From Heterotrichella gracilis (lineage: Eukaryota; Sar; Xanthophyceae; Tribonematales; Xanthonemataceae), in contig JAULBX010015753.1 of assembly GCA_032358255.1 (NCBI GenBank), positions 27,922-91,921 on the forward strand: a stretch of 64,000 nucleotides of DNA. The letters are read 5' to 3'. A program made the position numbers and the translations under genes. The notes beneath the pieces were generated by a model. It did no database searches. It was not told the origin of the DNA and saw nothing but the letters and a program-made list of their open reading frames with translations. This document shows, piece by piece, positions 7,137 to 57,900 of this stretch. Every line of letters begins with the position of its first letter. Within the stretch, counting starts at the first letter, position 1.

Positions 7137-7194
7137 GGTTCACGCCGCCACCACCGACTTGATTGCCTTGAGCGCCTCCTCAATGTGCTTCTCG
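7137..7194 (-). repeat. 58-bp exact copy of the PRXQ final exon end, in its 3' UTR
   Basis: Bases 7137-7194 repeat 7225-7282 exactly, a displacement of 88 bp. The copied segment spans the last coding bases (EKHIEEALKAIKSVVAA region), the stop and the first bases after it. It lies just downstream of the true stop, so it is non-coding here. Confidence 0.9.
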
Positions 7195-7227
7195 CTGCAC
7201 CTCTTAACCAAAACCCTAGCTCGGGGT

Positions 7228-9499
7228 TCACGCCGCCACCACCGACTTGATTGCCTTGAGCGCCTCCTCAATGTGCTTCTCGGGGTTGAACTGGTCGTTG
7301 AAGGAAAGCACGCACTTGCCATCCTTGTCAATCACATACGTCTGCAAGGGGTGTGGGAGGATGAGTGGCGAGGGTTTGGGTATGGAGGGTATTGGGTATT
7401 GTGACCACGCAGCCTTGTCAATAACATACGCCTGCAAGGGGTGGGGGAGGGAGGGCGTTGGGTGGGGATGTGTGGTTAGGGGATGCAGAGTACAGTGGCC
7501 ATGCAGATGCGCCATGCAGCATCCCCCCGACGCGACATGCCTGGTGCAAATGCCAGCACAGCGCCACCTTCCGCCACCACCCACATCCAGGGGGCAGCCC
7601 TATGAAGTCTTTCATGATGCCGAGGGCAATGCGCAGCAAAACCCCCTATGGGTGATGTCGCCACTCACCTGCCTGCCGGGCAGCAGCCCCATGAGGTCCC
7701 CCTTGATGCCAAAACCCTTCCCCCATCATTACCTTACCAACAAAACCCCGCTTTCCTACTTCACATTAGGCATAGCTGTTACTCACCTGCCTGCCGGGCA
7801 GTAGGCCCATGAGGTCCGCCTTGATGCCAAAGGCCTTGCGCAAGAAGTTGCCCTGGTCCGACAGGAGCGGGAAGGTCACGCGGTTGGCGGATGCGAACGC
7901 CGCGTTCTCCTCCGGCGTGTCGCCGCTGATGCCAAACACCTCTGCGCCCGCCTTTGTGAATGCCTCGTAGCGGTCGCGGAATGCGCATGCCTCCTTGGTG
8001 CACCCGGGGGTGGCGGCCTGAAGGGAAGGATTCAATCATGGTTCATGAGTCAGTTATAAAATCATTGATTTTATACTAATGAGAGGATTGTGTCATTCAG
8101 CACGACACTTGTTTATTGATTTCATTACTGTTGGTGCACCCGTGGATGGCGGCCTGTGAGGCAGGATTTTGGAAAGAGACACTCATGGAACCAGTGAATT
8201 TGTTACAAATCCCCAGGGAAAAGGCACAGGGTAAGGCGTCGCAGACGCGTGCACCGGTAGGTGAATGGCGAGGTAGCAGTTGCGGAAGGCGCACGCCTCC
8301 TTGGTGCACCTGGGAATGGTGGCTTGCAAGGGGGTGACGATCAGGGTTACTGGTAGGGTTATGGGTGGGGTAGTGGTGCAAACTGGACTGGCGGCCTGGG
8401 AGGTCCTTTACCCTATAGGATAAGGGGAAGGGTATGGTCGCCGCATCGAAGCAGCGCAGCCATGGCCTACTGCTCGTGTACGAGGATGTAGATCATGGTC
8501 AAGCATGCCAGAGCACGTCACGCAGCGTGTTCGGGATACCTTTAGAGGAGCGGGCTGGGAGTGCCCTCGGTTAGGGTTATTAGTGCGCACCTTAGGGTAG
8601 AAGAAGAGCACCACGGGCTTCTTGCCCTGGAAGTTGGACAGGGCCACTGCGCCGCCGTCGGAGGCCTTCAGGACCCTAACAGAACCACAACCAAGGGTTT
8701 TTGGATCCATCGACGTGCACCACATAGGAGTGTGCGAGTGTACTGTATAAGGGTGGGGTTGTGTTGTGCCCAAGGTGGGTCCTTGCCAGTTGACCTTCAG
8801 TGGCAAACAGCAGGTAACTGTGTTGTGGGAAGACAAGACACTTAAAGGGTTTTGCCAAGCGCAAGGGAGAGCATCACGGGGTGCACGCTTAGGATGATGA
8901 ATGCTTGGCGTCCCATGCAGTGCAAAAAAGGGGAAATCAAGGGAGGCAGATGGGACAGGTAGGTGGCATTTTGGCGGAGCCTCACACCTGTAGTAGTCTG
9001 AGTAGTCCTTGAGCTTGTCCCCCACCTTGAGCTCGGCCTGCACCACACGTGGCACTGCTCATGTGTGTGGTCACAATCAGGGGTATACTAATGATTCTAA
9101 CACTTAGCATAGTTAGTATACCCCTGTCACAGTTGTGGTTGCAACCACACCCACGGTGGCATGCATGAGACGTCATGCCACCCATATCCACACCGACACA
9201 CACGACACAACATGACACAGGGACAGCCTTGAATAGCCCACTGAGGCTATGTGCTAACAGAGAGGGGTACTAAGGAAGTGGGATATGGTGTGAATTACTG
9301 AAAAGGGTCTAGCTACAACACTTGAAAACACATTCCTCACTGGGTATTACTGAGGTGCACCTAGGTGGTGCCCCCACACACGTACCGTTACCCTCAGGGC
9401 TGCCCGTCGTGATACTTGTAGCCTGCCCACCTGGCCACGGGGGAGCCTGGCGATGCTTGCTGTGCGGCCAGGGGCAGTGAACGCCTGTGTGCGCAACAT
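7228..9499 (-). CDS. PRXQ: peroxiredoxin Q, plastid-targeted
   Basis: Thiol peroxidase of the BCP/PrxQ family, which reduces H2O2 and alkyl hydroperoxides using thioredoxin; the plant form acts in the plastid lumen/thylakoid. Five exons on the minus strand: 9499-9386, 9037-8988, 8675-8591, 8017-7787, 7341-7228, giving 197 residues. Exon 1 encodes a 38-residue transit peptide rich in Arg, Ser and Ala (MLRTQAFTAPGRTASIARL…VSRRAALRVT). The mature protein begins AELKVGDKLKDYS. The active site is TPGCTKEAC: peroxidatic Cys in PGCT and resolving Cys five residues on, as in atypical 2-Cys PrxQ. It continues GAEVFGISGDTPEEN, LLSDQGN, LLPGRQTYVIDKDGK and ends EALKAIKSVVAA. All intron phases match. Its introns and 3' UTR carry decayed copies of its own exon edges. 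Confidence 0.95.
7413..7450 (-). repeat. copy of PRXQ exon 5 acceptor and start inside intron 4
   Basis: Bases 7413-7450 match 7323-7360 with about three differences, displaced 90 bp. The copy includes the acceptor (TTGCAGGCGTATG on the minus strand) and the TYVIDK codons. It could act as a decoy acceptor; its frame soon breaks. Confidence 0.85.
7592..7720 (-). repeat. two further copies of the PRXQ exon 4 donor end
   Basis: 7663-7720 is a clear copy of the exon 4 end starting at 7781, keeping the donor (CAGGTGAGT on the minus strand) and the GLLPGRQ codons. 7592-7639 is a more diverged third copy of the same segment. Together with the real exon there are three graded copies spaced roughly 70-120 bp apart. 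Confidence 0.75.
8131..8330 (-). repeat. decayed copies of the PRXQ exon 4 acceptor end in intron 3
   Basis: The segment TTGGTGCACCCG..TGGCGGCCTG at the real exon 4 edge (7994-8020) recurs at 8131-8165 and again at about 8281-8330. The last copy also carries the GCGGAA..GCGCACGCCTCC part of the exon. Each sits inside intron 3. Confidence 0.75.
9078..9126. repeat. 14-bp perfect inverted repeat in PRXQ intron 1
   Basis: CAGGGGTATACTAA at 9078-9091 is the exact reverse complement of 9113-9126, with a 21-base loop. Partial complementarity extends outward (GTCACAA / TTGTGG). It lies within intron 1, between the transit-peptide exon and exon 2. Confidence 0.85.
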
Positions 9500-10715
9500 G
9501 GTGACCGAGTGCAAATTTTATTCTAGGGGTGACGTTTCTAGGGATGCCGGTCGGGGCAACAGGAGTAGCAGGCAACAGGAAGAGCAGTTGAGAAGCAGAA
9601 AATGCGTGTGAGATCTTTTACAACGAAGGATGTTGGCGCATGTTTTGCCCGTTTGCAAAAAAGTTGCAAACTTTTCGACGACTCCGTTGCCTGCAAAGAC
9701 AAACGTCATCCGGATTGGCTGGCATCGGATAGGCCAAGCCATGGTTACCCTTTAGGGTTCTTGTACCCTGAAAGGGTTGTTCTGCCCTTCCCAGCCAAAA
9801 ACCTCCGAGGTTGAACAGGGTGTCAGTGATGGTGTGTCTTGCTCAACTGCCAGCAGCCGCCAGTTGCCATTACGACAGGCAACGGCCATCATCTGTCTAT
9901 TTACGCCTTTGGCGTCTGTTTTCTTTTCTTTTCTTTTCTTTTCTTTTCTTTTCTTTTCTTTTCTTTTCTTTTCTTTTCTTTTCTTTTCTTTTCTTTTTTT
10001 TGCAACTGCAAGAGGTTTTACATCTGTCCTAGTGCTGCCCCACATGACAGGTCGCCTGTGGCCCACACGCCTGTGCATCCACATGCCAGGTCGCCTATAG
10101 CCCCCGACGCCTCTCCACATGTCAATGGCGAGGCTGCTGAGCTGCTGAGAAAACCTGCGGTAGCGCTGTGGTAACGATAGGGTGTAATGTGCCCAGGCTG
10201 TACTCCTCTCCACGCGTCAAACCATCCTATCACAGCAACAGCTCTCCCGGTGACTTGCCACCACAAATAACCCCTGGCCACTACATCATGCAACTAATAC
10301 ACCTTGCAAGAAAACAAATTGTGTCCAATGTGCTGCCGCCAATTACTACTGCAGAAGTCCAAACCATGGCACCCGTGGCACCCCAACCGCTTCACAAATG
10401 CTGCATACTGTATATGCCCTTGCGCTGTTCGCTCCTGCCCTGCCCTTGCGCGGTTCGCTCCTGCCCAGCCCTCACCGCCCCCGGCTCAACCACAGCCGCC
10501 CAGTGAACTGTGAAGTGTGCTCCCATGCCACCCTGCGCACCCAGCGCCACAGCCCCGGACAGCACATGCCCAGCTGCTTCAAGTTGCTGCGTATGTAGCG
10601 TGGTGCACCATGCCCCCCCACCCGCCACCACCACCACCACCACCACATCAACCCAACTCGTCGAGTGCATCCAGCTGTGTGCTCCTGTATTCCCTGCGCA
10701 CCCAGGCCCACCCCA
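9500..10715. other. PRXQ upstream region / bL35m downstream region
   Basis: No coding exon is supported. It contains the PRXQ promoter side (reading leftwards from about 9600), the TTTTC microsatellite, and the 3' flank of bL35m. The 153-residue minus ORF here is only the microsatellite translated as a Lys/Glu/Arg run. Confidence 0.5.
9919..10001 (+). repeat. (TTTTC)n microsatellite, about 16 units
   Basis: An uninterrupted pentanucleotide tract of TTTTC, ending in a short T run. It lies about 420 bp upstream of the PRXQ start codon. On the minus strand it is a GAAAA purine tract. Confidence 0.97.
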
Positions 10716-15889: not shown

Positions 15890-17280
15890 CCAAGCGTTTT
15901 TCCTTTAATTTTTTGTTCATTTTTTGTATGTCATGTGGGATGCCCTTACCTCTCTAGGAAAGGGAACCGCTCTGCTCTGGGGTGCAGGTGGCACTTTTGC
16001 TCTGTGGTTGGCTTCCACGCTGTTTTATTATCCTGTAACCCAGAGGAGTTGCGGCTGGGTTGGACAGGGGTTTGCAGGCCTATTGGTGAAAGAATAATCA
16101 CATCATGTTTTCAAATGCTTGTTCGACATGGGTGAATTTTGCAACATCCTTCACAGCTCAAGTGGTACATGATGCGGTGCGATAAGGCGAGTGGTGGTGG
16201 GTGGAGTGGGAGCAGGTGGGCCGGTCACCGTGTACATGCTGTGGGTGCCGTCTATTGAAGGGCTGTGTGTTTCTTTGTTTCTTTCTTGAGGCATCCGTCT
16301 ACTCCCATTGCCTTGGGTTACATGGATTATCCTTGGTCTATTTTGTACGGTATCCATGTAGCAGTCACGTGACAGTACGCTGGGTTTGACTCGATTAACC
16401 AGTGATGCTGCCGGGCAGAGCCTTATTGGAGGTATCAGCAGGACAGGGCAGGGGCTGGTGCAAGGTGTGTAATACTGTGGCAAGCAATGTTGTTACTAAT
16501 TGAATTAATCTGCTAAGCAGCTGAATAGCATGGCATCTGTTGAAACCACCACCCGCTGAAGTTGTTGTAATGTGTTCGATTGTCCGCTAATCAAGTCCAC
16601 AACAATCATCGCCTCGCGAGCCTCACCCTGAGGGTGTCGCTGCTGCCCCACTGCCCCACTGAGTGGCCTGGTGTAAGCCTTTTGCATGCATGCTTAGCTT
16701 ACAGTCTGCCTGGGCCAGTGCAGTGCAATTGCGGGTTCCGTTCCATTCAATGGACGTTCCTTGAAATTAAAAAAGAGATTTCCCTCAGAAAATGGGACTC
16801 CCTAATTGCAGAGTGTTAGATTGAAAAGTAAGGGTACAGAGCCACCGGTGCGGCGCAAATTGAATACAATTACAATTTCTGTACAGTAATTGCTCACGTT
16901 GCAGTTAAGGTGGGCAATGATTGGTGGCGAGCGAGAGTAGACAAATGGCGGTGTTTACAACAGTTGGTGAATGGGCTGTCAGTGGCGGTAATAATGGTGT
17001 ACAGAAATATAGAACTGGTTGCCACAGCCTCTGTGTGTGGCACGCATATTATTAATATGTGACATTTCTGACAACACCCAACGACAAACCCTCCCACGCA
17101 TACAATGTCCAGGACATAGCTTAATTGAAATATGGATGCTGAACTGTACAAATAAAGCAACATGTCTACAGCACAACCAGCGCGAATACACAATAAAGAA
17201 ATACATGGCACAATACACGATTTTTTATTTCGGAAATAAAAAACCACAGCACAGCATCACGTCACTCAAACCCCCTTGCT
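15890..17280. other. intergenic region between OS-9 and F2 3' ends
   Basis: Convergent 3' flanks of OS-9 (+) and F2 (-). No exon or RNA gene is supported. TTACA motifs on the + strand near 16870 and 16955 could be minus-strand TGTAA poly(A) signals for F2. Confidence 0.5.
16034..16038 (+). promoter_or_regulatory. candidate poly(A) signal TGTAA of OS-9
   Basis: TGTAA, the usual chlorophyte polyadenylation signal, occurs 145 bases after the OS-9 stop codon. The motif is short, so this is weak evidence on its own. Confidence 0.35.
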
Positions 17281-19094
17281 TCACTCCAACCGAAAAGTTT
17301 CTGATTCAAACCAGGCTTGCACTGCCGCGATCTCTCCCGCACTGGCTGCCACCACGTGCTCAAGTATCAGCAGGTCATCTGACATGTCGCAGTGCCCGAG
17401 ACCCACGTCAGCCGGCCTTGACCCACGTCAACGGTCTACACCAACCCATAGTTGCCCCTCATAATCACCGTTATCGCACTGTCACTCAAGGACGCTGCGC
17501 TGTCCGCCACAGTCACTTTGCTGCAGTCACTCCAGTGACTGGACGTCAATTTGATGAAGCGCGGCGGGATGACACCTGGCAGCCGGAGGTCCAGCACCCG
17601 CTCATTGGCCGGGATCGGGCGGGTCCCCAGGCACAGCGAGCGCAACCTTGGCAAGGGGGGCAGGCTGAACGTCACCGCAGCCCTTCCTTCCCTGTAATGC
17701 TCATCATGGTTGACTTCATCATCGAGATACAGCTCCTGCAGATGTCCCAGGCCAGCAAGCGCCTTGTGGAAGTCCATCCCCGGGGTGACTGGCATGTGCA
17801 GGCGCGTGAGCTGGGTGTGCAGCTGACAAGCCAGGCCATGTTGGGGCAGGGTCAGGGCTAGGGGCAGCTGGGCCCTGCTGGGTGCCCAAAACGGCCCGCC
17901 GATTGTCAATTCCCTGAGGGATGCTGGGAGCTCCAGAAGTGGCAGCTTGGCGGCATGGTATACCGCCTCGTTGTGGCGGCACAAAAAGAGCGTGAAGCTG
18001 GTGAGGAGGCGGATGCTGGCCAGGCGCCACGCATCCAGAACCTGTTCACACTCTACCACGATGGCGAGGCTGCTGAGCTGAGGCAAGAGCTCCAGGGCTG
18101 ACAGCCACCCAAAGCCCTCGGGGCTCCACCAGTTCACGTTGTGGAGCCTCAGTCGGAGGACTGACAGGCTGGCAAGTGGCGGGAGGCAGGGTGACGGGAA
18201 CCACTTGCAGTCCATCCCGCTATCCACAGACAACTCCAAGCAGGAGAGGAGCTGCAGGCTGGACAGTGCAGCCACCGCCGCTGGCAGGTCGTACTCGAGG
18301 GTGCCGTCATCAAATGCCCGCGTGTGCAGCTTCAGTGCCAGAGTCTGAAGGCTGGTGAGCCTGCCGATTGCTTTGGCAAAGCCAGCAATCCCGTTGTCCT
18401 CCCTACTGCGAATGCTCCAGGTGAGGTCCAGCGAGTGCAGGCGGGTGAAGCCCCCCAGGATGCCCAAATCGTGCAGCAAGCTGTCCTTGCCGTTTGAAAG
18501 TTTGGAAGTTAGGAGCATCCCTTTGAGCAACTGCAGGTGCTTCCCGCTGACAGCGTGCAGGAAGGGGGCTTGGTGGGTCAGGGGATCCGCCCCTTCGGTG
18601 TTGGTGGCCAGGTCAGCTTTGGGGTCCAGGCTGAGGTCCAGGTGGCAGGTGTGGGACAGCGGCAGCGCCCCATGGGTGCTACCTCCACTACTGCTGGGGA
18701 GAGTAGCCCCGCTGCTGTTTGGCTGGAACTGGGTGCCACTGGGAATGGGGTTACTGCCCTCGCCGCCAGCCAGGAACGCCACAAGCTGCTTTTGCTCCGC
18801 ACTATCAAGGTTTGTCAAGGAGGCGGGCCAGGCCACGCTCCGCCAGGCGCCGCTGGGCCCCTGCAGGGCCTCCTGCCAGCGCTTGCACACCAGCTGGTTG
18901 CGCACACGCTCCTCCAACGGCAGCAGGCCCAGCACCTCCTGCAGGAAGGGCACCGGCTGGGTGGGTGGGAGTTGGGCGTGGCGGGTTATGGTGGAGGGGA
19001 TCTCAGTGGCTTGACACGTAGAAGGCTGTGGGCCCTCACCCTGCGCAGCATTACGTTTGCGTGAAAGCTTGCTGATGGGTCGCCAGGCGCACAC
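17281..19094 (-). CDS. F-box/LRR protein copy F2, C-terminally truncated by a nonsense codon
   Basis: The open frame 19094-17436 encodes 552 residues with a recognisable F-box (FLQEVLGLLPLEERVRNQLV then CKRWQEAL) and the full family LRR-like body. It stops at GNYGLV with TAG where F1 has TAC (GLVYTVD). Beyond the stop the family sequence continues (TVDVGQGRLTW), then shifts frame, and the terminal block AGEIAAVQAWFESETFRLE is readable to a TGA at 17281-17283. So one nonsense change and one indel removed about 55 residues. The N-terminus differs from the paralogues' MADQ start (it begins MCAWRPISKLSRK), and the usual leader acceptor is not evident, although the leader donor is kept at 19388. 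It may be a recent pseudogene or a shortened but functional protein. Confidence 0.6.
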
Positions 19095-35250: not shown

Positions 35251-38200
35251 ATGCCGTGGCTAACCGGGCTGCCACTCTCACTCTGCTGCCTATTCCTGCT
35301 TGCACGGCCCCACCATGGCGCAGTCTCCAGCCTGCAGACCAGCCAGGTTCAGGACAAAACAGGGGCTGGGCAGAGCGACGTGATCGTGCTTACTGATGAT
35401 AACTTCGACGAGTATACCAGGGAGGGGGTGTGGATGATCAACGTGTTCTCTCCAAGGCAAGTCCACAAGTGTTTGAGGGGTTTTCCCCACACCTGGCATG
35501 CGCCACACTGCACCCTTTGCCAGCGCCTGTTGCAGGCTCGGGTGGTGCTTGGCTGGGTAGCTTGTGCAATGCCAAGGAACACCATTGCGACCTAGTTCTA
35601 GCTCGGAAATACACAGCAAGTTCACACCCTTGGGCGGGGTTTATTCTCTGCATATGACAGCGTGCTTTGCCCTCCTGCACCCGCCACCCTCACCAACCAT
35701 GCCCAGGTGAATTTTCACAAAAGCCACAGTGAACAAACGCTCTGCTGCATGTGCCGTCTGTGCCTAACAGGTGCCCTCGACTCCTGGTCAGCGTTGCACC
35801 CCAACGCACGCTGCAGTGGGCTCACTCATGTTACATCCCGACTACTTGCGACACTTCGTTGGGATGGTCCGTCAGCTGACTGCACAGCCCACTCCTGATG
35901 GTTTCTAATAGTTAGAAATAGTGCTATCCACGTCAAGCTGCGAGACCCTTATCCTGACTGCTGCCCCCCTATGTTGCAGGTGCCCCCACTGCGTGGAGAT
36001 GGCTCCCGCTTGGGAGCAGCTGGCCACAAAGCTCAAGGGGCAGGTGTTCGTGGCAAAGGTGGGTGGGCAACCCTAGCAAAGGGTTGCGGTGGAACCTTCT
36101 GCAGGGTGTGGACCCTAGCCAAGGGTTGTGGTGAAAACCCAGCAGCAGGGGTTTGGAGAGGGTGCGTAAGGGTTGGTATCCAAACCCATATTCTAGAATT
36201 TTGTGAGTATTGACCTAGGGTCTACAGTAGGCTGTGCGTATTCTAGGCTGGATTTGCCATTTGGCCTAGGCCAAGGCCACTCAGCCGTTTTTACTGCACT
36301 GATTGCCCTAGCCCAGGTCATTCACCCTTCACTCACCTGCTCTGCCAATTGCCACATGCCTCCCCATGACCACCGCCCCCGCACCCACCCCGCATGCACA
36401 CACACCCGCAGGTGAACGGTCTAGCGGAGCGCGTCATCCCCGCTCGTTTTGGCGTTGAGTACTACCCCTCGGTGTACCACCTCAAGGAGGGGGTCACGCG
36501 TGCATATGAGGGGGCGCGCACGCTGGAAAGGGTGAGAGGAAACCCTGAATCCCTGCAGTAAACCCTAAAAAATGCTGGTGTACCACCTCAAGAAGGGTGT
36601 CACGTTTGCGTATGAGGGGGCGCACGCGCTGGAAAAGGTTCCGGAACCTCCAGGCCAAACCCTTCAAATTTGGTGGTATACCCTAGATTACTGGTGCTTT
36701 TATAATGTGAAGGGGGACGTGGCACGTGCATGTGTACATGTGCATAGCCCCATTGGATAGATGCACGAATGTACATCCGGGAGGTGCATCATAGATATGC
36801 CTGGGTGAATGCGCACCATTCAGCTCCACCACACGCCACATGAGCACGGCACTCCCACAATCGAGATGAGTCAATCGCCTGCCCAGTTTTTCACCTACCC
36901 CAAGCCGTCCACCGCCCGTCCACCCCATCACCACCGCCCCTTTCTTCACGCATGTGCCCCAAAAGTATTTGCCACTCCACCTCACTCACTGCCTCCTAAT
37001 TAAGCCCTCCACCCTTCCACCTCACTGCGCGTTCCCTGCCTCCCTCGTGTACCGTTTCCCCCTGCATACATCCTCCTATGCCTTCAGCGACTACATGCAG
37101 TTCAAAACTACATATCTTGCTCGATGTTACACCCTAATTAAGGGCCTAAGTGTTACCCCCCTGCTCCCCCAGATGTCCTCCTACGCCATCAGTGACTACA
37201 TCCACACCAAGCCGCAGCCGCTGCTCAAGAGCCCAAACACAATGCTGGGCAGGGCAATCGGGGTGGGGTACAGGTGGGCGGGGGGGGGGGGGGGTTCTGG
37301 GTTTTGTCACAGGACTTGACCCATCTCCAAGAATGGTTGGCAAGGGGTGGAGAGTGGGAGGTGCTGGGGAGGGTGGAGTCACTGGCAATGCTACCAGCAG
37401 CAGCCTGTTGAGCTGCCTCCCCCTGTGCCCCAGAGTGCATCGCTCAGAGCCTCCTTTCTGCTGCGGGCCTGTTTGTATGCCTGATATGCCTGTTGGTAAT
37501 GCACGCAGGCCTGCCTATATGCATCACGGACATTGTAATCTGCGTTACACGCGTGCCTTGCAATGTACATGGAATTACTTACGTGTATAGTATGTGCATA
37601 TGCACGCACACGAGCTGTGGCGCCTCGCTGCATAACTAACCTGCCCCGCTTCCCCACCCGCAGCCTCCCGTACCGCATGTGGCGTGGCTACGAATACCTG
37701 CACAAGGAGCAGCAGTGGTCGGAGCTGGCAATCGTGGGGGGCTTCTTTGGCTCACTGGTCATGATCGGTGCGCAGGAAACCCTAGCACCCTACACACCCT
37801 GAACCCTAATACCCTATAACCCTGTGTCTGTTGCGCATTTTTGGCTCAGAAGTCATGGTGGGTGCGCAGGGGAACCCTAAAATCCTACCAACCTGTGTGT
37901 GCTGGGGTTCGTTTGGTCACTACTGTAGTCATGGTCGGTGTGCAAGGGAGCTTGAAACCCTAAAACCCTTCATATCCTAAATCCTGTGTGCCATACCAAG
38001 TAGTGCTGGCTCCAGGGAAGGGATCCATAAGGATTGCTACCGTATTCAGATTGCGAGTCACTGTTGATCCCCCTGTGAAGGATTGCTATTCATCCATACA
38101 ATCACCCTACTTACGTATCCATAGTATATCCAATTGGTTTAAACCCCACCAACTCATGCAGTGCTTGTATTCCCCACCCCTCCCCCTCCCCTCCCCCACC

Positions 38201-39443: not shown

Positions 39444-42400
39444 ATGGCTGGCAAACAGGACCCCACCGACACCCTGTTCATGGGCAACCTGCCCGCCAAG
39501 GTCACCAAGCGGCTGCTGTACGAGGTCTGCTTCCAGGTAACGGCAGGGGGTGGAGGTGTTTTTTCTCCTTTCGTAGGGTATTTCTGCTTGGGAACGGGTG
39601 GGATGTTCCGGAATATACTGGGGTTCCTCCAGGTGCATGTGCCTTTTATATGCATGCATATGGGTGTCACATGCATGTAATGTTTATATGCACGCAATTC
39701 AGTATGGTGTGACTGTGCAGCATGTTTGCGTTATCTTACTATCCTTTTCTTTGCCACAACACAAGGTCGATGCTCAGTTCACGCTTAGGACCAATCGCAG
39801 CAACCATATCCCCCCCCCCCAAGTCATGGCAGCAACTGTTGAAGGTCCTCCAAAATCCTTTCTTTTCAATATAATGGCCAACCAGTAACGGCAAATGGTG
39901 TCCGCTCCTTCCATGAACCCCTTCCCACTCATCTCGACCCCTAAACCCTAAACCCCAAACCCTAAACATTTCACCCTAATACCCTTCATATGAGGGCTGA
40001 CACGCTCCCTCATCCTGCACCCCTTCCCATGCAGGCCGGCCCAGCAGCGCGTGTGAGTATCCCATGCACGCCGGCACCTTCCCTAAACCCTTAACATTAC
40101 ACCCTATACCCTTCCCACGCAGGCCGGCCCAGTAGCGCGTGTCAGCATCCCCAAGGATGGCGAGGGCGTGTCCAAGGGCTTTGGCTTTGTGCAGTTCCAT
40201 GACCTGGTGAGTGTGGAAACCCTACACCAGGGTTTGTATCTTGGGTGGACGGGACAGTTGAATAGGGGCAGAAGGCATTGGTAGGCCATGAGGAAGTCCT
40301 CGATCTGGCGCTCCATAGACAAACTTGATGGCCATCTAAAATGCCATGCATGTACACTATACTACAGTAACAGTGCTGAAGTTTGTGTGGTGTCACTAAA
40401 CGACAACCGCTGACCTTGAGTTGCCTGCCCAGGAATCCGCCAAGTACGCACATGCGCTGCTGAGCGACAACGTGCGACTGTTTGACCGCACCCTCAGGGT
40501 GGGCTACTCCAACCAGGGCAGGGGCGAGGCGCCAGGGGCGGATGACAGCGTGGTCAAGAGGAGGAAGAGCACTGGTGGTCAGGACCCCGCCCCTTCACCC
40601 TACGCTGGTACGCACGCTCCCCTGGCGATCGGGAAGGCTGGTCGACTGGTTGCAAGCATGGATACATTCTTGATTTTTACTCTGTACAGTGACTGGCACT
40701 GACTGGCCGGTCTCTTCCCTTTAACCCTAGCCAAGGGAGTACCAATACGTCCCTGAAACCTAGCAAGGGGTTACCGCCAGGCTGGTTTCCCCTCCCTGAA
40801 CCCCAGCCACTAGACCCTAAATCCTAAACATGCACCCTGAAACCCTGTGGCGAGGGTGTACCGACAAGGCACGTGTGATCCCCTCCCCCTGCGCGCAGGC
40901 CTCCATGCGCTGGCCAAGGGGGCCGCGTCAGGCGCTTCTGAGGGTGGGGGCGCCTCCACATTCACGCTTTCAAGGTGGCTGGACCAGCCCACTCCCCCTG
41001 CACCCCCCAGGTGAGCTCCGCACATGTCCACATGTATACAAGGGTGGGCCCTATCCCTGCACCATCGCATCACCTACTGCCGCACCAATTCATTTGGACC
41101 AGCCGACTCCCTCTGTTGCTACATCATCCATTCCACAGCCGAATTTGCGATAGTGCACATTACACCCATGTGAGCTCCCCATTTTGCACCATGTATGCAG
41201 AGGATGGGCCCTATCGCTGCACCCATGCATGGCCCACTACGGCATCCATTCAAGTGGACACACATACACATAATGGTTGATATACGAGATCGGGTAATTT
41301 ACAGGGTATACTGGTCTTCTCTGTATGAATAATTTACACACGGGGAATTTATGACGTCCATTCCAGCCTGACACATACCCTCATCTTACAATTCTTCGCA
41401 CCTCGGATCCCCCCCACACACCTGAACACCAGACATGGACAGACACCTCACATGTGCTTTGCACAATGCTGACAGGGCCCCTGAACGTTTGCACAAGGAT
41501 GGCCGAATTCCTAAAATTTTGCACATCGCTGGTCAGACCCTCGAAAATGTGCAAACTTGTGCAGGGACCCTTCGCCCCCCCCGGCACCCGACACCAACCC
41601 TTTGGCGGTGCCTCGCGAGCGGCGGGTACTCAAGGCGCGCAGGAACCGTCCGGATGGCTTTTCTTCGCGGCAAGGGGGTGAAAGCCCTTTCCCTGGTGAA
41701 AACCCTAACGAGGGTTTGCAGTCTCCTCAACCACAGCCCGCTTCCAACAGCGCCTTTGCGGTTAGTAGCCACACAGGAGGGGCCAGCCAGCCCCACCACC
41801 AGCCTCACCACCATGAGCCACCCAGTCATCACCACACCCACCAGCACGACCCACAGCCACAGCCACAGCCACCCCACCAGCACCAACACGACCCACAGCC
41901 GCATCAGCACCAGCACCACACGCTGCCCCCCCACCTGCAGCGCCAGGCGGCCAATGGCGGCGCGTCTCACGTGCCATCTGCTGGCGCACCACCACCACCA
42001 CCACCACCGGCGCTGCCGCCAGTCAGCCTACCACCCCCCCTTGGCGGCATGCAGCAACATGTGGCAGGTGGGGGCGCGCAAGACAGCATGCATCAGCACA
42101 TGCCAGGTGGCAGCGTGCTGCAGCAGTACATGCCAGGTGGCAGCCAACAGGAGCATAACATGTCAGGTGGTGGCGCACAGCATATGCCAGGTGGAGGCCC
42201 ACAGCAGCAGCACATGCCAGGTGGAGTTTTGCAAGGCAGCGGTGCGCACTGCAGCATGCAGCATCAACTGCCAGGTGGCGGTGCACAGCGACAATTGCCA
42301 CCTGGTTTGACGCAACAGCACATGCCAGGAGGGGGCGCACAGCAGCATGTGTCAGGTAACAGTCCACAGCAGCAAGTGCCACCTGGTTTACTACAACAGC

Positions 42401-46857: not shown

Positions 46858-49800
46858 ATGAGCGTCTCCGCAAACCAAGTCGCCTCGGTACTGATACAGG
46901 TGGCGCTGCTTGCTCGTCTCGTGGACGGTAAAGGTGAGCTTTGCCAGCCTGGGGACAACCTTCCACCTGCGTTTCATAGCCTCCCAGCCCGCCGTGCTGA
47001 ACAGCGTTTTGGCGTTGCGCTGCAGGCCCCAAAGTGTACCAATGGAGCCCCGCCAACGCGGCATCCCTGAGGAAAATAGAGCTCAAGTGCGGCAGCCAGA
47101 TTGCAGTGCAGTGGTCTGAGCAAAAGGTGAACCGGGACGTATGGCGACTGCCCAGCCATAGCTGCCCAGCCAACTTTGGGATCAAGGCAGCCCTGCCACG
47201 GATGCTGGCCAGGCCCAGCAAGACGGGCAGCTACCTACTCTCCTTCCCAACACAGGGAGTGGTGAGTGCCTTACATTGCAGGGCATTTGGGTCCCACTGG
47301 TGTACAGCTATGTGAAAGCTTGACATGCATGCCACCTGGCCACCTAGTGATCTGTGTATTGATGGATGTCACTTCAAATACTTGCATTGCAGCAGTACAA
47401 CCAGTTGGGCAGTCGGCCTTGCACCAGCCTGCGCCATAGTTGTGTCCTGTGTTCTGTGAGTGCACATACCAGTTCTGATGGTGTGTCTGCTCACGCCTTG
47501 CCTGTGCAGTGCACTTCCAAGTCTTGCAGTGTCACCAGTATTCCTATACATCCCTGGTGGTGCACAGTGTTGAGGCCATTGTTGTGCTTGCCCTGAGTGC
47601 TATTTGGCAAGCTCTGATGGTCTAAGTAGCATGCCACAAACCATGCCACCTGGCAACCGCTACTGACCTTGCCTGCTTCTCCATTCCCTGCAGTATTTCT
47701 TCACCAGCTCGCAAGGAAAGGAGTGCGCTCGTGGAAGTAAGTGCCGCACAACCAACCTATCACTTGGAGATGTTGCAGTTGGTAGTCATCTTTCAGCGGA
47801 CTGCGCATGCGCACAGCACCTCCCCCTGCTGAGGCTTGGGGAACCGAAACATGTTGTTGATGAATTGGGGAACCATGCCTTACACCTGCAACGCATGTCC
47901 CACACGAGCATCATGCCTACGTCAGTACGTACCCACTCCCAGCACCAGTTAAGAGTTTTTATTTTAGGGTTTAGTACCGGCATGGGGACCTCAAAAGGTC
48001 GTTTGTAAGTCGAAAATTGGCTAGTACATGCTTTCACCTGCAGCAATTTGCACTGGCGTATCAAACTGGAATGGTAGTTAGCACCCGTCAAACCACTGGT
48101 CGCTATCTCCCTTGCCAACTGTGCTGTGCTCCCCGCAGTGCTGATGACAGTGGTGGTGACGTGCCCATGGAGCGTGCAAGGGGCTTTGCCCAAGCCGCCG
48201 CCAAAGGGCGCGCGCAAGCCTCCGCCGCGCAAGCCTCCGCCGCGCAAGCCTCCGCCGCGCAAGCGCGCGCCACCCCCGCGCAAGATATCCACATCATCAA
48301 GTAAGTCCAAAGCACGCCCACATACCTTACTCAGCAGCCACTTGCAGGCGGGCACAGCTGATAGCAAGGGGTTGCCAGTCACCTAGTGAGGACCACGGTG
48401 ATTGTTCACAATACAGCTACTAGGAAGGAGTTCAAGCCGGATTCTTGGATACCGTACCCTGCCTGAAAAACAGGCTAGCACTCAGCAAGGTGCATGCAAC
48501 ACACTGCATTGTTTTGCATGCACCTTGCTGAGTGGTGGCATGCAAACCACTGCATGGCATGGCACCAGTGTGTTGCATGTACCCGGCAGCTGTTTACCAC
48601 TCCTACCACTACCATGTGCTGACCTCTACCACCCCGTCTCCCCCGCAGCTCCCCCCGTGAACAAGGTCATCTTGCTCCCCTGGGTCACCGGCAGGGGCTA
48701 CTCAATGATGGAGGTCACTTGCGGCACCAAGGTGATCTTTAATTGGTCTGGCAACAACGTACGTATGCCTGTGGCGCAAACCCTAAACCCTTTACCCTAA
48801 AACAGTGCCTGTGGCGCATATTCTGCATGAGCTGCAGCATTGGGTTGGGGAACAGTAGACATGTTGCTATGCAGCCTGACGCAGGCCTCTGGCGCTGCTT
48901 TTCCGTTATCTTTGTTGTAGGTACGGATGGTATCTTTTATGCTGCATCTGGCAAGCATGTACCTATGGCCTTGACCATGCAACCCCTTGCACTCCCGTCC
49001 ACTTGTCCAACCACCACCACCACCACCATCCATATATGGGGAATTGGGGGACTTCTGCAACCTCCCCTATCCTCTGATTCACCCCCCCGCCGCCTCCCAA
49101 TACCCCATTCCTCCCCTCCCACAGGCCCACGGCCTGTGTCGCATCCCCCCTCCCCTGGACCCCAAGAACCCCACCTCCACCTGCTCGAACAGCAAGGACA
49201 CAACCCACGGCTGCAACGCCTTTAACTCCGCCTCCTTTCCTTTCGAGGACTGCTACGAGCTGGTCAATGACACGGGCAACTTCACACTCACCTTCAAGAA
49301 CAAGGGCACGGTGCGTTTGGGGTTTAGGGTTTAGGCCACGGGATGCATCCCAAGGGTTTAGGGTTTCCAGGTCCTGCATTGCACAGGGGGAGTACATGCT
49401 CGCCATCAAGAAGAAGGGCATGGTGGGTGCGTTTGTGTAACGAGCTTGACACTCTATATTACTGTAGCGTACCTCCTGGTCCAAGGGGCATGGATCCTGG
49501 ACGGGTACTAAACTGATGCGCTGTAAGAGGCCCGCAACTGTACCCTAGCTTGTTGTTGTATTTAAGCCCATGGCACAGAGAGACGACCACCATTTGCAAG
49601 TCAATCAACCTGCAAGTTCGTTATATTGTGGGGGGCGGGGGGTGCATTGGACAGGGGGGATGCACGGTCACATTTAACAACAGGGGCAGAAGGGGTGGTA
49701 GGAGAGTGGGCGGTGGGGGGTGCTTACGCAAGGGTAGTGGCGGGTGAGGGTTGCGTAGCACAGGTCACCTTACTGGCTGAGGCGATCAGGCGGGACTTCC

Positions 49801-51983: not shown

Positions 51984-54900
51984 GAAACTGCCTCTGGAAA
52001 GTGCTCCTGGAAACCTTCTGCTTCGGCTGCCCCGCCATGCTGTCAGCCTTGGCTAGCTGCTCAGGGGAGCCCTGCTGCTCCACCCAAGCCCATGGCAGCT
52101 GGACCACCATGGTACCCTCCCGCCCCCTCGCACGCCACCCACCCGCCAGCCACCTCTCAGCAGCAGCACCCAAGCTGGTTAGCTGTTCCATCCCCAGCAG
52201 GGGCTTCTTGGGACACCAGCTCCTGTCCCAGTCCCAAAGAAAACACAGCACGTTCAGGGACGGCAGCGGCGCGCGGGTAGTCGCAGACTTCACCTCCTCA
52301 GAGGTAATTTTCAGTCCTCACTGGCCATGTAATAGCCTAACCCCAAAGCCTAATTTTTTACCCTTGCAGGGTAGTTGCAGACTTCACCTCAGAGCCTGGC
52401 CATATGAATTCCTAATCCCTAGGTTTCAACCCTTGCAGGGAGCAGGCGTCCGGGTGCCCCGCTGGGCTCCTGCACCGCTTGCTCACCCCCCTTACAGCCT
52501 AAACCCTAAACATCTATGCCCCTCCTTGCTGCACCAGGGGCTGTGCTTCTGGCCACAATACTGTTTGCTACTCCCCCACTGCTGGCTCAGCTGCACACAA
52601 ACATTTTGCAAGAGCTACCGCCACTCCTTCATACTCCCTCCCATGAAGTACACACCACTGCCCCCACACCCCACACCACACACCACACCACCACCCACCC
52701 CGCAAACCCGGTATACCTCCCACAGGGCCTCCTGGTGCCAGCAGATGACTTCAAGGCAGAGGAGTGGGTGACCACAGTGGACTGGGGCAACGTGCTCACA
52801 CCCGTGGCAGATGGGGTATCCATCCAAGTGTGCCAGCCAAACTACGAGGTGCGGCGTTGAAAGCAGCACCCGGCATCCACTTTTGCACAGATGGGTTGCC
52901 CCCATGCGGGATAGCAGCAGTGCGTGGTTGCATTGGTTGTGCAAGCCTGGGGTGGCATGCTTACCAATACTGCGTCGAGTACTGGAATAGCTAGCCACAT
53001 GGTTCTGCTTGGTGTGGCAATGGTACCTTTACTATCCTGGCTGTGGCACGCTTCTGAACCAGGCAACTCCCTGTGCGGAATCTCTACACAGCGGGGAGGT
53101 TCGCTCACCTTGAGAAAAAAGCAAAGTTTCCACAAAGCTCGTCGCACTGGGTGTAGTGTCCACACTCCAAGTATGTGTAAGTCCACACATACTTGGAGTA
53201 TGGACACTACACCCAGTTGCAGGACCATGTGGGGCGTCGCAATTTTCCCAGGCTTGGGGAACCCCTGCCAACACCCACAACAAACCCAGAAGCGCGAAAA
53301 CCCTGATCAAAACCCTCATGACAGCCCTGCCACCCGTCGCAGGTGCGGTTCGTATATCGCGCGGTGGGCCGCCCCCTGGAGCATGCCAAGACCATCCTAG
53401 CGCACGTGGGCCATTCCGGATGGCAGGACACGCAGGACATCTCACTGCAGGTGGACAAGCGGAACCCCGAGGTAGGGTTTGGCTGGCTGGTGCACCTGGG
53501 CCCCGTGAGGGGTTGCTGGCGCAGGCCATGCATGTGTATGGGCACAGGCTGGCGGGAATGCGGGGCACGGACTATCCTCCTTTGTGCATATGACATGCTG
53601 CATTCGAAGGCAAGGAACCTGTGTGTCGTATGCAAATGCGATGTCGAGCATCTCCACATGCGAATGCATGTTATACATGGATCGCGTCAAATTCCGTAAC
53701 CCAAGGTCAAGGAGCCTGCGTGGCGAATTCTGGATCCCAGCTCAATGCGTGCATGCTATAACCGGATCGTACTCCCGTCACTGATGCGCCTGCATGCTGC
53801 ATGCAATCCCCATCCCCATCCCCGTCCCCGTCCACTCCACCATTGACCCTATCTAGGGGAGATACAAATCACTTCCCCCCCTTCCCCCCTAGGTGTGGTG
53901 GGGCGTGTACCGCCTGTCTGCTGGCAAGTTGCCTGCTGCCTGGCACCTTGAGATGCAGGTTGTGTTCAAGGGGTTCATGGACAACGGGGTGGAGAGGTGA
54001 GGGGCGGGCTAGGGGATACCTTGCCTGTCTAAAGCTCAATACTACTGTTTTGGGCTTGTGTAAGTGGGGAGGCGTGGGCTGAGGGGGAGACATGTGGAGC
54101 CTATATCCTCCAGTGTATACTGTGCAAGGGGCGTAGTCGTTTGTGGGACTGCATGTAAGGACACTACTTGAAACTGTGTGCATGGGATGCATGAGCCGCT
54201 CGGGGGCACACCCTTACAATGAATCATCGCCAACCCCCACTGTCCGCGCCGTGCAAGACAAATCACGTGAGCTGCGCAGCTCGCTATTAATATAGGTTAG
54301 CATGATGGCAACTGTGCCATGCACAAATGCATGAGGGTTGGCATCATATTCTCCAGTCCCTCTCAAAAGTATTCAGTGCCACCATCCCTGCCACCCCGCC
54401 AGGTGGGACAACAACGGGGGCCACAACTGGACGGTGGAGGTGGAGCTGGCGCAGGGCGAGGGGCTGGTGAACGCACCCACCGCCTCCGCACCCGCCTCCC
54501 GCTCCCTGGTTTCCTCGCTGCTGCTGCGCATCGACTCGCTCATCGCCACGCGCAAGCTGACAACGGAGCAGGGGGCGGTGCTGCGCACGCTGGCCTGGCA
54601 GAAGGACTTCCCGCTGCTGAGGATGTATGAGAAGGTGGGTGGGGTGGGCGAGTGACTTGGCAGTGGTGGCGGGCAGCTGAGGAGTGCGAGGGAACATGCA
54701 CGGGGATGGGGCATGCGGTGGGGAGTGCGCGAGGGTCAGGGCATGCGGGCGAGGGGGGTGAAGGAAGGGGTTGGTGAGTTGTCATGGCGCGACAGAGAGA
54801 GAGTCATTTGGGAGGGGACAGCAGAACGTGCAGGAGTCAATATGCCTCAACGGCCATCCACCCCAATAGCTACCATGTCTGCACATTCTGACCTCGCCCT

Positions 54901-57900
54901 CCCTCCCCATCCCAGGTGCAGCATTGGGACGACTGGGGCGTGCGCGCAGCGCTGGCCCGCAGGGCCCCCTTCCTGCGCCGGCCCGGGCTCCACGTGGTGC
55001 ACATCGCCAGCGAGATGGCGCCCATTGCAAAGTGCGGGGGGCTGGGCGACGTGGTGACGTCGCTTGGCAAAGCGCATGCGGCCACAGGCACCCTGGTGGA
55101 GGTCATCATGCCCAAATACGACTGCATCAAATACGAGTGCGTGCCTGGGGGGGGAGGTTGTGCAGGGAAAAGGGGGGTTGTATTTATGTGGCCCAGTTGG
55201 GGTACGTTCATTGAGAAGTGGCTGTGAAGCGTGCGCTGCTGTTTGTTTTGGGGGACTGGGCTGTGAGTTGAAGATGGCGGGGCCTCTTAACCTGCACCAA
55301 CATTTCATGGACAGTTGATCAAAAACACGAAAAGTACCACCAATAGGACGCATTGAGGCAGGTCTCTGGGGGGCCATGCACACATCAGAACCCTACCAAC
55401 ACCCTTGCAACACAGGGGCGTGGGCGAGCTGCGCCAGCTGATGGAGTTCTCCACCCCCTTGGGGCAACACACACATCAAAACCCTACCAAGAACCCTATC
55501 AAAACCTTAACAAACCCCTGCTGCGCAGGGGCGTGGGCGAGCTGCGCCAGCTGATGGAGTTCTCCACCCCCTGGGGCGACGCGCACATCAAGACCGTCGC
55601 CTGGTCGGGCATTGTGGACGGCCTGCCCGTGTACTTCATTGAGCCCTACTCCTACGAGGGCTTCTTCTGGAGGGGCCAGGTGTATGGCGAGCACGATGAC
55701 TCGCTGCGCTTCATGTTCTTCTCGAAAGCAGCGCTGGAGTTTCTGCTGCAGGCGGGCAAGCAGCCTGACGTGTTGCACATACACGACTGGCAGGTGGCGG
55801 CCGTGGTGCGTACAGCGCTGGTGGAAACCCTTGCCGAAACCCCAGGGGCACCATGTGAACATACATGGCTGGCAGGCGGCGGCGGTCGTGCACTGCCCCA
55901 TACCTAGCAAATTCTGCCAAAATCTTAGCAAATTCTCTGCCCCCCTCCAAAACAATTCGCTGCCCCCCTCCAAGCACCAGGGACTAGGCGGCGGCGGTGC
56001 CCTGCTAGAATATAAAAGACAAATAGTCCCTGGCGTCCCTCACATGTATGCATGCCAAACCCTATCCCTTGCACCTCTCTGACCACAGCTGTGCGACCTC
56101 GCTCTAACACCCCCCCAACCCCACTGCAGGCGCCCCTGCTGCGGGAGGTGTACCAGCCGCGCGGCCTCACCCGCCCCGGCGTGCTGCTCACCATCCACAA
56201 CATTGCCTTCCAGGGCTGGATCACGCCGGACTACCTGGAGCTGCTGGGCATACCCCGGGATAGGGTTTTCCATGCCGAGTGCATGCTGGAGGACACACGG
56301 CCTGGGTTCTTCCAGGACCAGCCGGATGCTAACCTGCTCAAGGGGGCGGTGGTGTATGCGGATAGGTGGGTAGGACATCAAATGGGGAGGTTGTGGGTGG
56401 GTGCATGGGTGCGAGCTTGCATGTACCCTTAATCTTACAGTTTTGCATGCGGAGTGCGTGCTGGCCACTGGAAACAGGCAGGTGTGGTTGAATGCATGGT
56501 GCATAGTCCCATTTCATCACCAGCGTAAGGCACCATCTCTCCCCCCCAGAGGGCAAATACACCCCTCTCACAAGCCGAATACCACTCCCCCTTGCAGGGT
56601 GACCACTGTCTCCCCCACCTATGCACGCGAGGTGTTCACCCCCCTGTATGGCATGGGCATGCAAGACATGCTGGCCAAGCACGCCTACAAGTTCACGGGG
56701 GTGCTCAACGGGATAGACCACGAGATGTGGGACCCGGCAAAGGACACGCTCATTCCCGCCAACTTCACCGCAAAGGTGCGGGCAAGGGAAGGAGGGGGGG
56801 GACATGGGTGTGGTTGCTGGCGCATGGGGAAGTTGGGGAGGGGGGGAGGGCAATGCGTATGAGCGAGAAGCAGGGTATATTACTGTACTAAATACCTTAA
56901 CAATTAATTCTGGCTTCAATCATACAGTAAGTTCTGCAAAAAGCGTTATGGTAGTTTGTGTCTCTTCCCGTGGGTATATCTTGATAAGTTAGGGTATTAG
57001 TACACCCCTGGAGCAAGGAAGCACTGGCGGCGGCTATCTCAACCATCTGTGCACACTCCACCCCACGCCAGCACAACGCAGCGGTTTCCTCCCCTCACCC
57101 GCACCCCACCCACCTTGCAGACCCTGGAGGGCAAGGAGGCCTGCAAGAAGGCCCTGTGCGAGGAGCTGCGCATGCCCTACGGCCTGCACCCTAGCCTGCT
57201 GGAGTCCAAGCTGGGCAAGGAGCGCACCGCGGCGGCGGCGGCGGGCAAGGACGGGGCGGGGATGCCCCCATCGAAGCCCATTATTGCCATTGTGTCGAGG
57301 CTGACTGAGCAGAAGGGCCTGCCGCTGCTGATCCACGGGCTGTACATGGCGCTGCAGAGCGGGGCACAGGTGGGGTGGGAAGCTGGGCTAGTTCTATTTT
57401 GGCTTTATTGCTAGCCAAAACCCTCACTTTTGGGGTGAAGAGTGCATCCCACACCCGTGATATATGTGGGATTTGTGGGATGGCTGACTACTGTGGATTA
57501 TATGAGCAAGCTCTGAAGCGATGGCTCATTGATCCCATGAGTCATGGGATCTCTTGTCTGGGCGGGTTGCATGTTGTGCATGGAACGGTGCAAATAATAA
57601 AAACAATTGCGCCTCCGTTCTTGCAGGTCATCCTGCTTGGCTCTGCGTCCGACTACGCCACCCAGTGCGAGTTTGACCGCATGGCGCACGAGTTGTGGCA
57701 GGGGCCAGACGCGCGCCTGGTGCTGCGCTACGACGAGGCGCTGAGCCACAGGATCTACGCGGGCGCCGACATGATCCTCATCCCCTCCTTCTTCGAGCCC
57801 TGCGGCCTCACGCAGCTCATCGCGCTGCGCTACGGGACCATACCCGTGGTGCGGGAGACGGTGTGTGTGGCGAGAACGGGGGGGTTTAGAGAGGCATGGT

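What the first reader, a model, noticed from the sequence alone, without database searches (positions are those of the whole stretch)
7137..56464. Exon-edge echoes: introns carry decayed tandem copies of adjacent exon ends in at least five unrelated genes
PRXQ, the TMX1-like gene, the RRM gene, the cupredoxin gene and starch synthase III each have intron (or 3' UTR) copies of their own exon boundaries, usually including the splice site. The displacements are 88, 90, about 119, 106, 105, 88, 113, about 113, about 70 and 175 bp. Copies range from exact (58 bp in PRXQ) to heavily diverged, and some edges are present three times (PRXQ exon 4 donor, TMX1-like exon 5 donor). This looks like a continuing process of short tandem duplication centred on splice junctions. 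It would lengthen introns, create decoy splice sites and could seed new introns, as the tandem-duplication model of intron gain proposes. The number of cases in 64 kb suggests a genome-wide habit.
Basis: partly seen in the sequence, partly recalled or inferred. Interest (0 to 1): 0.9.

Follow-up and report, generated by a model that had tools for sequence, protein, structure and literature searches.

The report
Telomere-patched exon-edge copies in introns
In this green alga many introns begin or end with a dead copy of the neighbouring exon edge, often joined to it by a short stretch of telomere repeat, as if breaks at splice junctions were patched with chromosome-end DNA; this points to an overlooked way in which introns grow.

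Summary
In 284 kb (window plus 22 ten-kb stretches of its 68.5-Mb genome, picked by contig number; an unnamed, probably trebouxiophyte green alga) 68 of 449 donors and 60 of 450 acceptors have a copy of their own exon edge in the adjoining intron. Mismatched exon-intron pairs give 3 of 2932 and 6 of 2915. The intronic copies are dead. Events are 5-8 times denser at junctions than in intron interiors or other noncoding DNA, and 21 of 31 donor copies end within 14 nt of the exon: the process is junction-centred.

Only 16 of 82 pairs abut. The gap is rich in the organism's own telomere repeat, TTTAGGG: 29 of 54 spacers against 7.5 expected. Conversely, telomeric tracts within 45 nt of a donor are flanked by direct repeats in 45 of 90 cases, against about 10% of controls. 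No clear intron birth by duplication was found.

Best reading: breaks at exon-intron junctions repaired with telomeric filler and long target-site duplication. The anatomy is shown; break and telomerase are inferred.

The parts
7228..7341 (-). Last coding exon of the PRXQ-like gene, with stop codon
   Evidence: Stop codon and frame read by eye; the gene model put the exon at 7247-7341 and a false one on the echo at 7140-7194; Pfam PF00578 1.6e-33 for the joined protein
7105..7194 (-). Echo of 7193-7282 (end of PRXQ coding region plus start of the 3' flank), displacement 88, 89% identity, no spacer
7410..7450 (-). Echo of the PRXQ acceptor edge 7320-7360, displacement 90
7663..7719 (-). Echo of the PRXQ donor edge 7781-7837, displacement 118, 91% identity; intronic overhang 6 nt
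7572..7621 (-). Third, weaker copy of the same donor edge (87 from the second, score 20)
8273..8331 (-). Echo of the PRXQ acceptor edge 7967-8025, displacement 306; a further partial copy at 8131-8168
36471..36533 (+). Real donor edge of the thioredoxin-domain (TMX1-like) gene
36534..36576 (+). Spacer holding telomere-type repeat in CCCTAAA orientation
36577..36639 (+). Echo of the donor edge, displacement 106, 87% identity
37071..37099 (+). Echo of the acceptor edge 37176-37204, displacement 105, score 21
37835..37893 (+). Echo of 37741-37798, displacement 94, 76% identity, telomere-type spacer
40021..40063 (+). Echo of the RRM-gene acceptor edge 40109-40151, displacement 88, 91% identity
40064..40108 (+). 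Spacer with telomere-type repeat (CCCTAAA orientation) between the two copies
49274..49428 (+).
55384..55483 (+). Echo of the starch-synthase acceptor edge 55498-55595, displacement 114, 87% identity, telomere-type spacer
55856..55891 (+). Echo of the starch-synthase donor edge 55774-55809, displacement 82, score 24
56440..56464 (+). Weak echo of 56265-56289, displacement 175, score 19; could be chance

Best explanation
DNA breaks (or stalled ends) arise preferentially at exon-intron junctions, most often a few bases inside the intron, and are repaired with a patch. The stretch next to the break (median 63 nt, mostly 35-110) ends up on both sides of it, as fill-in of long staggered ends would give. 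A short run of the cell's own telomere repeat, added by telomerase or captured, is often sealed in between. Because the outer exon edge keeps its splice site, the patch and the second exon-edge copy become intron and decay neutrally. Each event lengthens the intron by about 40-230 bp, rarely more. SHOWN: junction-centred direct repeats, telomeric spacers, neutral decay of the inner copy, recurrence across the genome sample. INFERRED: that breaks are the cause, that ends are staggered, that telomerase does the addition, and that junctions are targeted by the break rather than only favoured by survival.
For: Junction echoes far above mismatched and next-intron controls. Density 0.85 per kb of junction opportunity against 0.17 in interiors of short introns and 0.10 in other noncoding DNA; at id >=90, 17 edge events against 3 and 1. 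Edge against interior 53:9 with 0.60 expected interior, p 3e-13; for id >=84, 30:4. Donor overhang skewed, 21 of 31 at 2-14 nt (KS p 4e-7). Telomere 7-mers are in 27 of 59 spacers while the best of 19 same-composition motif families reaches 7. Telomeric tracts near donors are flanked by direct repeats in 45 of 90, against about 10% of positions without telomere motif. The motif lies between the copies (28 of 63), less often just beyond them (6 and 4). Genome-wide, (TTTAGGG)2 lies 0-30 nt after CAGGTRRG 217 times but 57 times at 60-90 nt, and the other orientation 121 against 44; long tracts can count more than once. Of 20 places picked only for donor plus telomere motif, 11 have an echo. The repeat is the real telomere: contigs C70 and C140 begin with arrays of it, about 70 bp. 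Insertion of telomeric repeats in break repair, sometimes with target duplication, is established in mammals (passages of PMC2246262; PMC7215372).
Against: No empty orthologous site could be examined, so insertion in one step is not shown. Break-site nucleotides in register with the repeat, the telomerase hallmark in mammals, could not be decided: at the side predicted for G orientation five readable cases gave 6, 4, 2, 2, 0 matching bases, but the opposite side gave much the same (7, 4, 1, 1, 0). The motif's orientation is not tied to either copy. 12 of 40 pairs with id >=84 have no telomere motif; six of these are in a second displacement class (193-213 bp), and the two of their spacers that were searched are single copy and of unknown origin. 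Among older motif-free pairs the edge bias is weak (11 edge, 9 interior). The donor excess over acceptors holds for young pairs (22:8, p 0.016) but not over all pairs (31:22, p 0.27), and acceptor overhangs are not skewed. One of eight loci picked for (TTTAGGG)4 alone (L030) has flanking repeats where no gene was predicted. Target-site duplications of this length are long for staggered breaks. Exon calls rest on a self-trained model, which calls some echoes exons.
Confidence: 0.56

Rival explanations
1. Survival filter. Telomere-patched duplications happen anywhere, but those in exons are lethal and those deep in introns are removed because TTTAG|G and CTAAA act as cryptic splice signals; only those within about 45 nt of a donor, too close to be spliced to, persist.
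For: Telomere motif coverage is 5.0% in the first 45 nt against 1.5% in interiors. Sense TTTAGGG, the orientation with an acceptor-like TTTAG, is rarer than CCCTAAA in interiors. Among older motif-free pairs the edge bias is weak.
Against: Other noncoding DNA, where no such filter should act, has few pairs (6 in 61 kb), and telomere tracts in introns over 1000 bp are flanked by repeats in only 1 of 33. Young motif-free pairs are also mostly at edges (7 edge, 2 interior, 3 exon-internal).
Confidence: 0.18
2. Uniform head-to-tail tandem duplication plus purifying selection: exonic ones are purged, so survivors look edge-centred. This is the plain null.
For: Edge events are expected even so: about 40% of viable placements in short introns. 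16 of 82 pairs are true tandems. PRXQ's 88-bp copy spans the stop codon.
Against: Edge excess p 3e-13, skewed donor overhang, spacers in most pairs, telomeric motif in the spacers.
Confidence: 0.08
3. Telomere-like tracts near donors came first, for another reason, and are fragile; slippage or fork restart beside them makes the local copies.
For: Tracts without echoes are also denser near donors (10.4% of 144 echo-less GGTRRG donors have the motif within 40 nt, against 2.1% of 96 pseudo-donors). Some pairs carry the motif inside the copies and not the spacer (14 of 82).
Against: A duplicated tract should follow both copies, but the motif lies next to the real copy and not beyond the decoy in 10 discordant donor cases against 1 (p 0.012).
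Confidence: 0.12
4. RNA-templated filling: a reverse transcriptase (possibly telomerase itself) copies telomerase RNA and then the nearby pre-mRNA into a break; a protected 5' splice site would explain copies ending just inside the intron.
For: Donor-copy ends cluster at +2 to +14; telomeric and local sequence occur in one insert.
Against: Copies that include flanking intron show that the template was genomic DNA or unspliced RNA (e.g. L021:697 and 3031). Copies across a spliced exon junction were not searched for systematically; none was noticed.
Confidence: 0.05
5. A mobile intronic element (introner-like) with long target duplications.
For: Insert lengths bunch near 106 and 200 bp (post hoc).
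Against: Two motif-free spacers searched against the whole genome are single copy; the only shared sequence seen is the telomere repeat. Other spacers were not searched.
Confidence: 0.02

Closest known systems
Interstitial telomeric sequences inserted during double-strand-break repair in mammals (PMC2246262, PMC7215372; passages seen)
   Same: The organism's own telomere repeat sits inside unrelated sequence, sometimes with target duplication attributed to staggered breaks.
   Different: There plain duplication is a minority outcome (6 of 130 rodent, 4 of 25 primate, 3 of 66 horse loci, with more inside complex rearrangements in horse) and intronic placement fits random insertion (31% of human loci). 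Here it recurs at splice junctions with copies of median 63 bp.
New introns in Daphnia with direct repeats from staggered breaks (PMC4202315; passages seen)
   Same: Direct repeats flank inserts, and repeated breaks are proposed to lengthen introns.
   Different: Daphnia exon-intron repeats are 4-12 bp and mark intron birth; the word 'telomer' does not occur in the main text. Here existing introns grow.
Short telomere motifs (telo boxes) in plant genes (PMC3022908; passages seen)
   Same: Single telomere units in genes, with a model of telomerase acting on transcription-linked free 3' ends.
   Different: In Arabidopsis and rice they are enriched in 5' UTRs and not in introns; no link to splice junctions was in the passages seen, and 'splic' does not occur in the text.
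Direct repeats near intron borders (PMC11782384; abstract and passages seen)
   Same: Repeats at intron-exon borders attributed to break repair.
   Different: 4-30 bp, mean 11.4, in about half the cases separated by the intron's length; here the repeats flank a patch within one end of the intron.
Tandem-duplication model of intron gain (recalled; PMC3443670 seen in a search listing only)
   Same: Duplication at AG|GT sites.
   Different: The model's signature, an intron equal to one duplication unit, was not clearly found.

Membership tests
Interstitial telomeric insertion by break repair | Insert consists of the organism's own telomere repeat | tested here: met
   TTTAGGG in 27 of 59 spacers, next-best same-composition family 7; contigs C70 and C140 start with it. 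Not all spacers carry it.
Interstitial telomeric insertion by break repair | One-step insertion shown against an empty orthologous site | not testable with these tools
   The genome search states that the assembly has no relatives here.
Interstitial telomeric insertion by break repair | Target-site duplication or other end processing at the insert | tested here: met
   Tracts of 14-25 bp (n=74): 40% flanked by direct repeats, against 5.9% of random noncoding and 9.3% of random intronic positions
Interstitial telomeric insertion by break repair | Break-site nucleotides in register with the repeat | tested here: inconclusive
   Few readable junctions, and the predicted and opposite sides look alike
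Staggered-break intron growth or gain (Daphnia type) | Direct repeats flanking filler | tested here: met
   66 of 82 pairs have a spacer over 2 bp
Staggered-break intron growth or gain (Daphnia type) | Short (4-12 bp) repeats at the two ends of a new intron | tested here: not met
   Copies have median 63.5 bp and lie at one end of the intron. The search could not see repeats as short as 4-12 bp.
Tandem-duplication intron gain | Intron equals one duplication unit; its ends match the flanking exons in register | tested here: not met
   0 of 429 and 2 of 429
Head-to-tail tandem duplication | Copies abut | tested here: not met
   Met in 16 of 82 pairs only
Introner (mobile intron) | Multicopy element family | tested here: not met
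   Two of two spacers searched genome-wide are single copy; the others were not searched

The most novel reading that the evidence does not exclude
Splice junctions are mutational hotspots at which telomerase itself seals breaks: the cell repeatedly patches exon-intron boundaries with telomere repeat and long target duplications, and this patching is a main source of intron growth in this alga.
Probability: 0.3. Interest if true: 0.88.

Novelty: new variant of a known kind. Interest (0 to 1): 0.75.

Why it matters
How introns gain length, and whether DNA breaks preferentially at splice junctions, are open questions usually approached with faint traces. Here the traces are long, dense (82 pairs in 284 kb, about 20,000 if extrapolated to the genome), graded in age and often tagged with telomere repeat. 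About 5% of short-intron DNA in the sample is still recognisable as such inserts. That makes the link between transcription or splicing, DNA breakage and telomerase testable in one organism, and it supplies a natural set of decoy splice sites of known origin.

Tried and rejected
Uniform duplication with purging of exonic cases was my first expectation and was rejected. Assembly artefact was judged unlikely: the inner copies differ from the exon equally at codon positions 1 and 2 and about twice as much at position 3 (21, 20, 44 differences over about 370 sites each, id >=86), and in pairs with one coding copy 45 of 52 gaps break the frame. Alternative coding exons were rejected by the same result. 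Mobile element. A middle copy explaining the 172-244 bp class was significant in only 7 of 18 (one search was the same test with a bug and is void). Motif polarity towards one copy: none. Register microhomology: undecided. Intron births. A first gene-finder run over-predicted introns and was replaced. One search stopped on an error and was redone.

Rows dropped before counts: L007 (all N) and L002 (bacterial contig) in all junction statistics (the 264 kb still held them); coding or simple repeats at window 42000-42800 and 9900-10010, L009, L004 and L025; displacements over 450; redundant pairs. The spacer test did not yet mask L025 and took displacements up to 320. In one search, 20 of the 82 pairs fall outside the edge/interior comparison (6 interior outside short introns, 3 donor pairs with the decoy on the other side, 7 exon-internal, 4 with both copies coding). 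The gene finder was trained on the same sequence. To check it, 20 of the 24 echo-bearing exons printed were sent to Pfam and 10 matched a family at E <1e-4.
Full report
WHAT WAS CHECKED. The window lies in a 68.5-Mb assembly of 903 contigs. A protein predicted from the window has its closest named relatives in Chlorella and Micractinium (59-61%) and an unnamed relative at 90%, so I take it as an unnamed trebouxiophyte green alga. To test 'genome-wide' I took 24 further stretches of 10 kb chosen by contig number. One was all N and one was a bacterial contig; the other 22 plus the window make 284 kb. A self-trained gene model gave clean splice consensus (CAG|GTRRG...TGCAG|G) and 467 introns.

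IS IT MORE THAN CHANCE? In the first 264 kb 191 near-diagonal pairs were found, against 0 in one Markov-1 local shuffle. Exon edge against own intron (score >=20): 68 of 449 donors, 60 of 450 acceptors. Mismatched pairs: 3 of 2932 and 6 of 2915. Exon edge against the next intron: 1 of 222. Where the gene model calls an echo an exon, one pair is counted at both ends, so the two tallies overlap.

THE COPIES ARE DEAD. In pairs with one coding copy and id >=86 the differences at codon positions 1, 2 and 3 are 21, 20 and 44 over about 370 sites each, and 58 in 583 noncoding sites. This is what a neutral decoy plus a selected exon predicts. Most gaps break the frame.

ARE THEY CENTRED ON JUNCTIONS? 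Of 82 non-redundant pairs, 53 span a junction with the decoy on the intron side; 9 lie inside short introns, where 60% of the 62 would be expected. Per kb of opportunity the densities are 0.85 at junctions, 0.17 in intron interiors and 0.10 in other noncoding DNA. Young pairs (id >=84) favour donors over acceptors, 22 to 8 (p 0.016); over all pairs it is 31 to 22 (p 0.27). Donor copies reach only 2-14 nt into the intron in 21 of 31; acceptor overhangs are spread evenly.

NOT TANDEM, BUT PATCHED. Only 16 of 82 pairs abut. The spacer often carries TTTAGGG or CCCTAAA: 29 of 54 spacers against a control mean of 7.5 and maximum of 16 in 500 draws; for spacers up to 70 bp, 17 of 25 against 1.9. Among 20 seven-base families of the same composition the telomere one is in 27 of 59 spacers and the next in 7. 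In 28 of the 31 spacers with the motif all copies of it point the same way, but both orientations are about equally common. The motif is the true telomere: contigs C70 and C140 begin with arrays of it of about 70 bp.

THE CONVERSE. Telomeric tracts within 45 nt of a donor are flanked by direct repeats in 45 of 90 cases, near acceptors in 22 of 62, in interiors in 18 of 133, in introns over 1000 bp in 1 of 33; positions without the motif give 8-10%. Donors with the motif within 45 nt have an echo in 35 of 76 cases, donors without it in 33 of 373. Of 20 places taken in order from the list (20 of its first 22; one at a contig end and one duplicate left out), chosen for donor plus motif only, 11 have an echo (in one of them, L047, the matched stretch lies upstream of the donor and does not include it). 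Genome-wide, the doubled motif is 3.8 times (217 against 57) and 2.8 times (121 against 44) more frequent 0-30 nt than 60-90 nt after a donor-like CAGGTRRG, in the two orientations (long tracts can count more than once). The motif is a property of real junctions: it follows 10.4% of echo-less real GGTRRG donors and 2.1% of pseudo-donors. Of eight loci picked for (TTTAGGG)4 alone, five have flanking repeats at score >=18; one of these, L030, lies where no gene was predicted, and L028 shows four copies of one exon end joined by telomeric stretches.

HOW IT MOST LIKELY WORKS. The order exon edge - telomere patch - exon edge, with a patch seldom found beyond the decoy (10 discordant donor cases against 1), fits insertion at a break with duplication of the target. 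It fits less well with duplication of a unit that already held the patch. I infer a break or stalled end just inside the intron, fill-in of long staggered ends, and addition or capture of telomere repeat. Telomerase is likely but unproved: the in-register test was undecided, the predicted and the opposite side looking alike. Why junctions are hit is open; a survival filter may contribute (older motif-free pairs show little edge bias), but it does not explain the scarcity in other noncoding DNA.

UNEXPLAINED. Displacements form two groups, about 41-136 (mode near 106) and 172-244 (mode near 200), with few at 124-171 (5 against 14.3 expected when spacers are shuffled among the 66 spaced pairs, p 0.0002; thresholds chosen after seeing the data). 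Among young pairs of the second group six lack the motif and one that I could find, L012:8942, has it.

INTRON BIRTH. The signature of the tandem-duplication model of intron gain was looked for and not clearly found. The process lengthens introns; that it seeds them is not shown.

WHAT IS KNOWN. Telomeric insertion in break repair is known from mammals, with target duplication as a minority outcome (passages of PMC2246262 and PMC7215372). Staggered-break repeats of 4-12 bp are known from Daphnia neointrons (passages). Short repeats near intron borders were described in 2025 (PMC11782384, abstract and passages). Plant telo boxes are enriched in 5' UTRs but not in introns (PMC3022908, passages). 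Eight paper searches listed, among the 6 to 20 papers shown by each, nothing whose title or abstract start joins telomere repeats, exon-edge copies and splice junctions; unlisted hits were not looked at, and that library lacks most subscription papers.

The sample is called picked by contig number, not random; the opposite-side result, the all-pairs donor-acceptor ratio, the older motif-free pairs, L030 and L047 were added. For these the confidence went from 0.58 to 0.56 and the survival-filter rival from 0.17 to 0.18.

Noticed in passing
window 16606-34322, minus strand: An array of paralogous genes with a recurring LPEPILQEVLG.LP..ERVRAQ..C.RW motif (F-box-like by eye, recalled, no search) followed by leucine-rich stretches; another copy at 3804-5527 on the plus strand.
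   Followed up: no
window 30157-30242: An exact, abutting 42-bp duplication (44 matching bases) in sequence called noncoding; the only 100% identical pair among the window's near-diagonal pairs; probably very recent.
   Followed up: partly
window 42042-42726: A coding minisatellite (unit about 27-30 bp, Gln/His/Met/Pro/Gly-rich in one frame by eye) in or beside the RRM gene; masked in the statistics.
   Followed up: partly
window 9919-10001: TTTTC microsatellite of 16.6 copies.
   Followed up: no
L002 (contig C1, 894 kb, 36% GC): Long intronless ORFs that look bacterial (Bacteroidota-like by eye, no search) in the assembly: an associated or contaminating bacterium. Its 10 kb has none of the local pairs.
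   Followed up: partly
284-kb sample, all loci: Two displacement classes near 106 and 200 bp. In the longer class copy length and spacer length vary inversely (correlation -0.86, 20 pairs), though cutting the class by displacement makes part of that automatic; could reflect nucleosome- or Okazaki-sized tracts.
   Followed up: partly
L028:1300-1730: Exon end plus 9 nt of intron present four times with telomeric stretches between: repeated rounds of the same event.
   Followed up: partly
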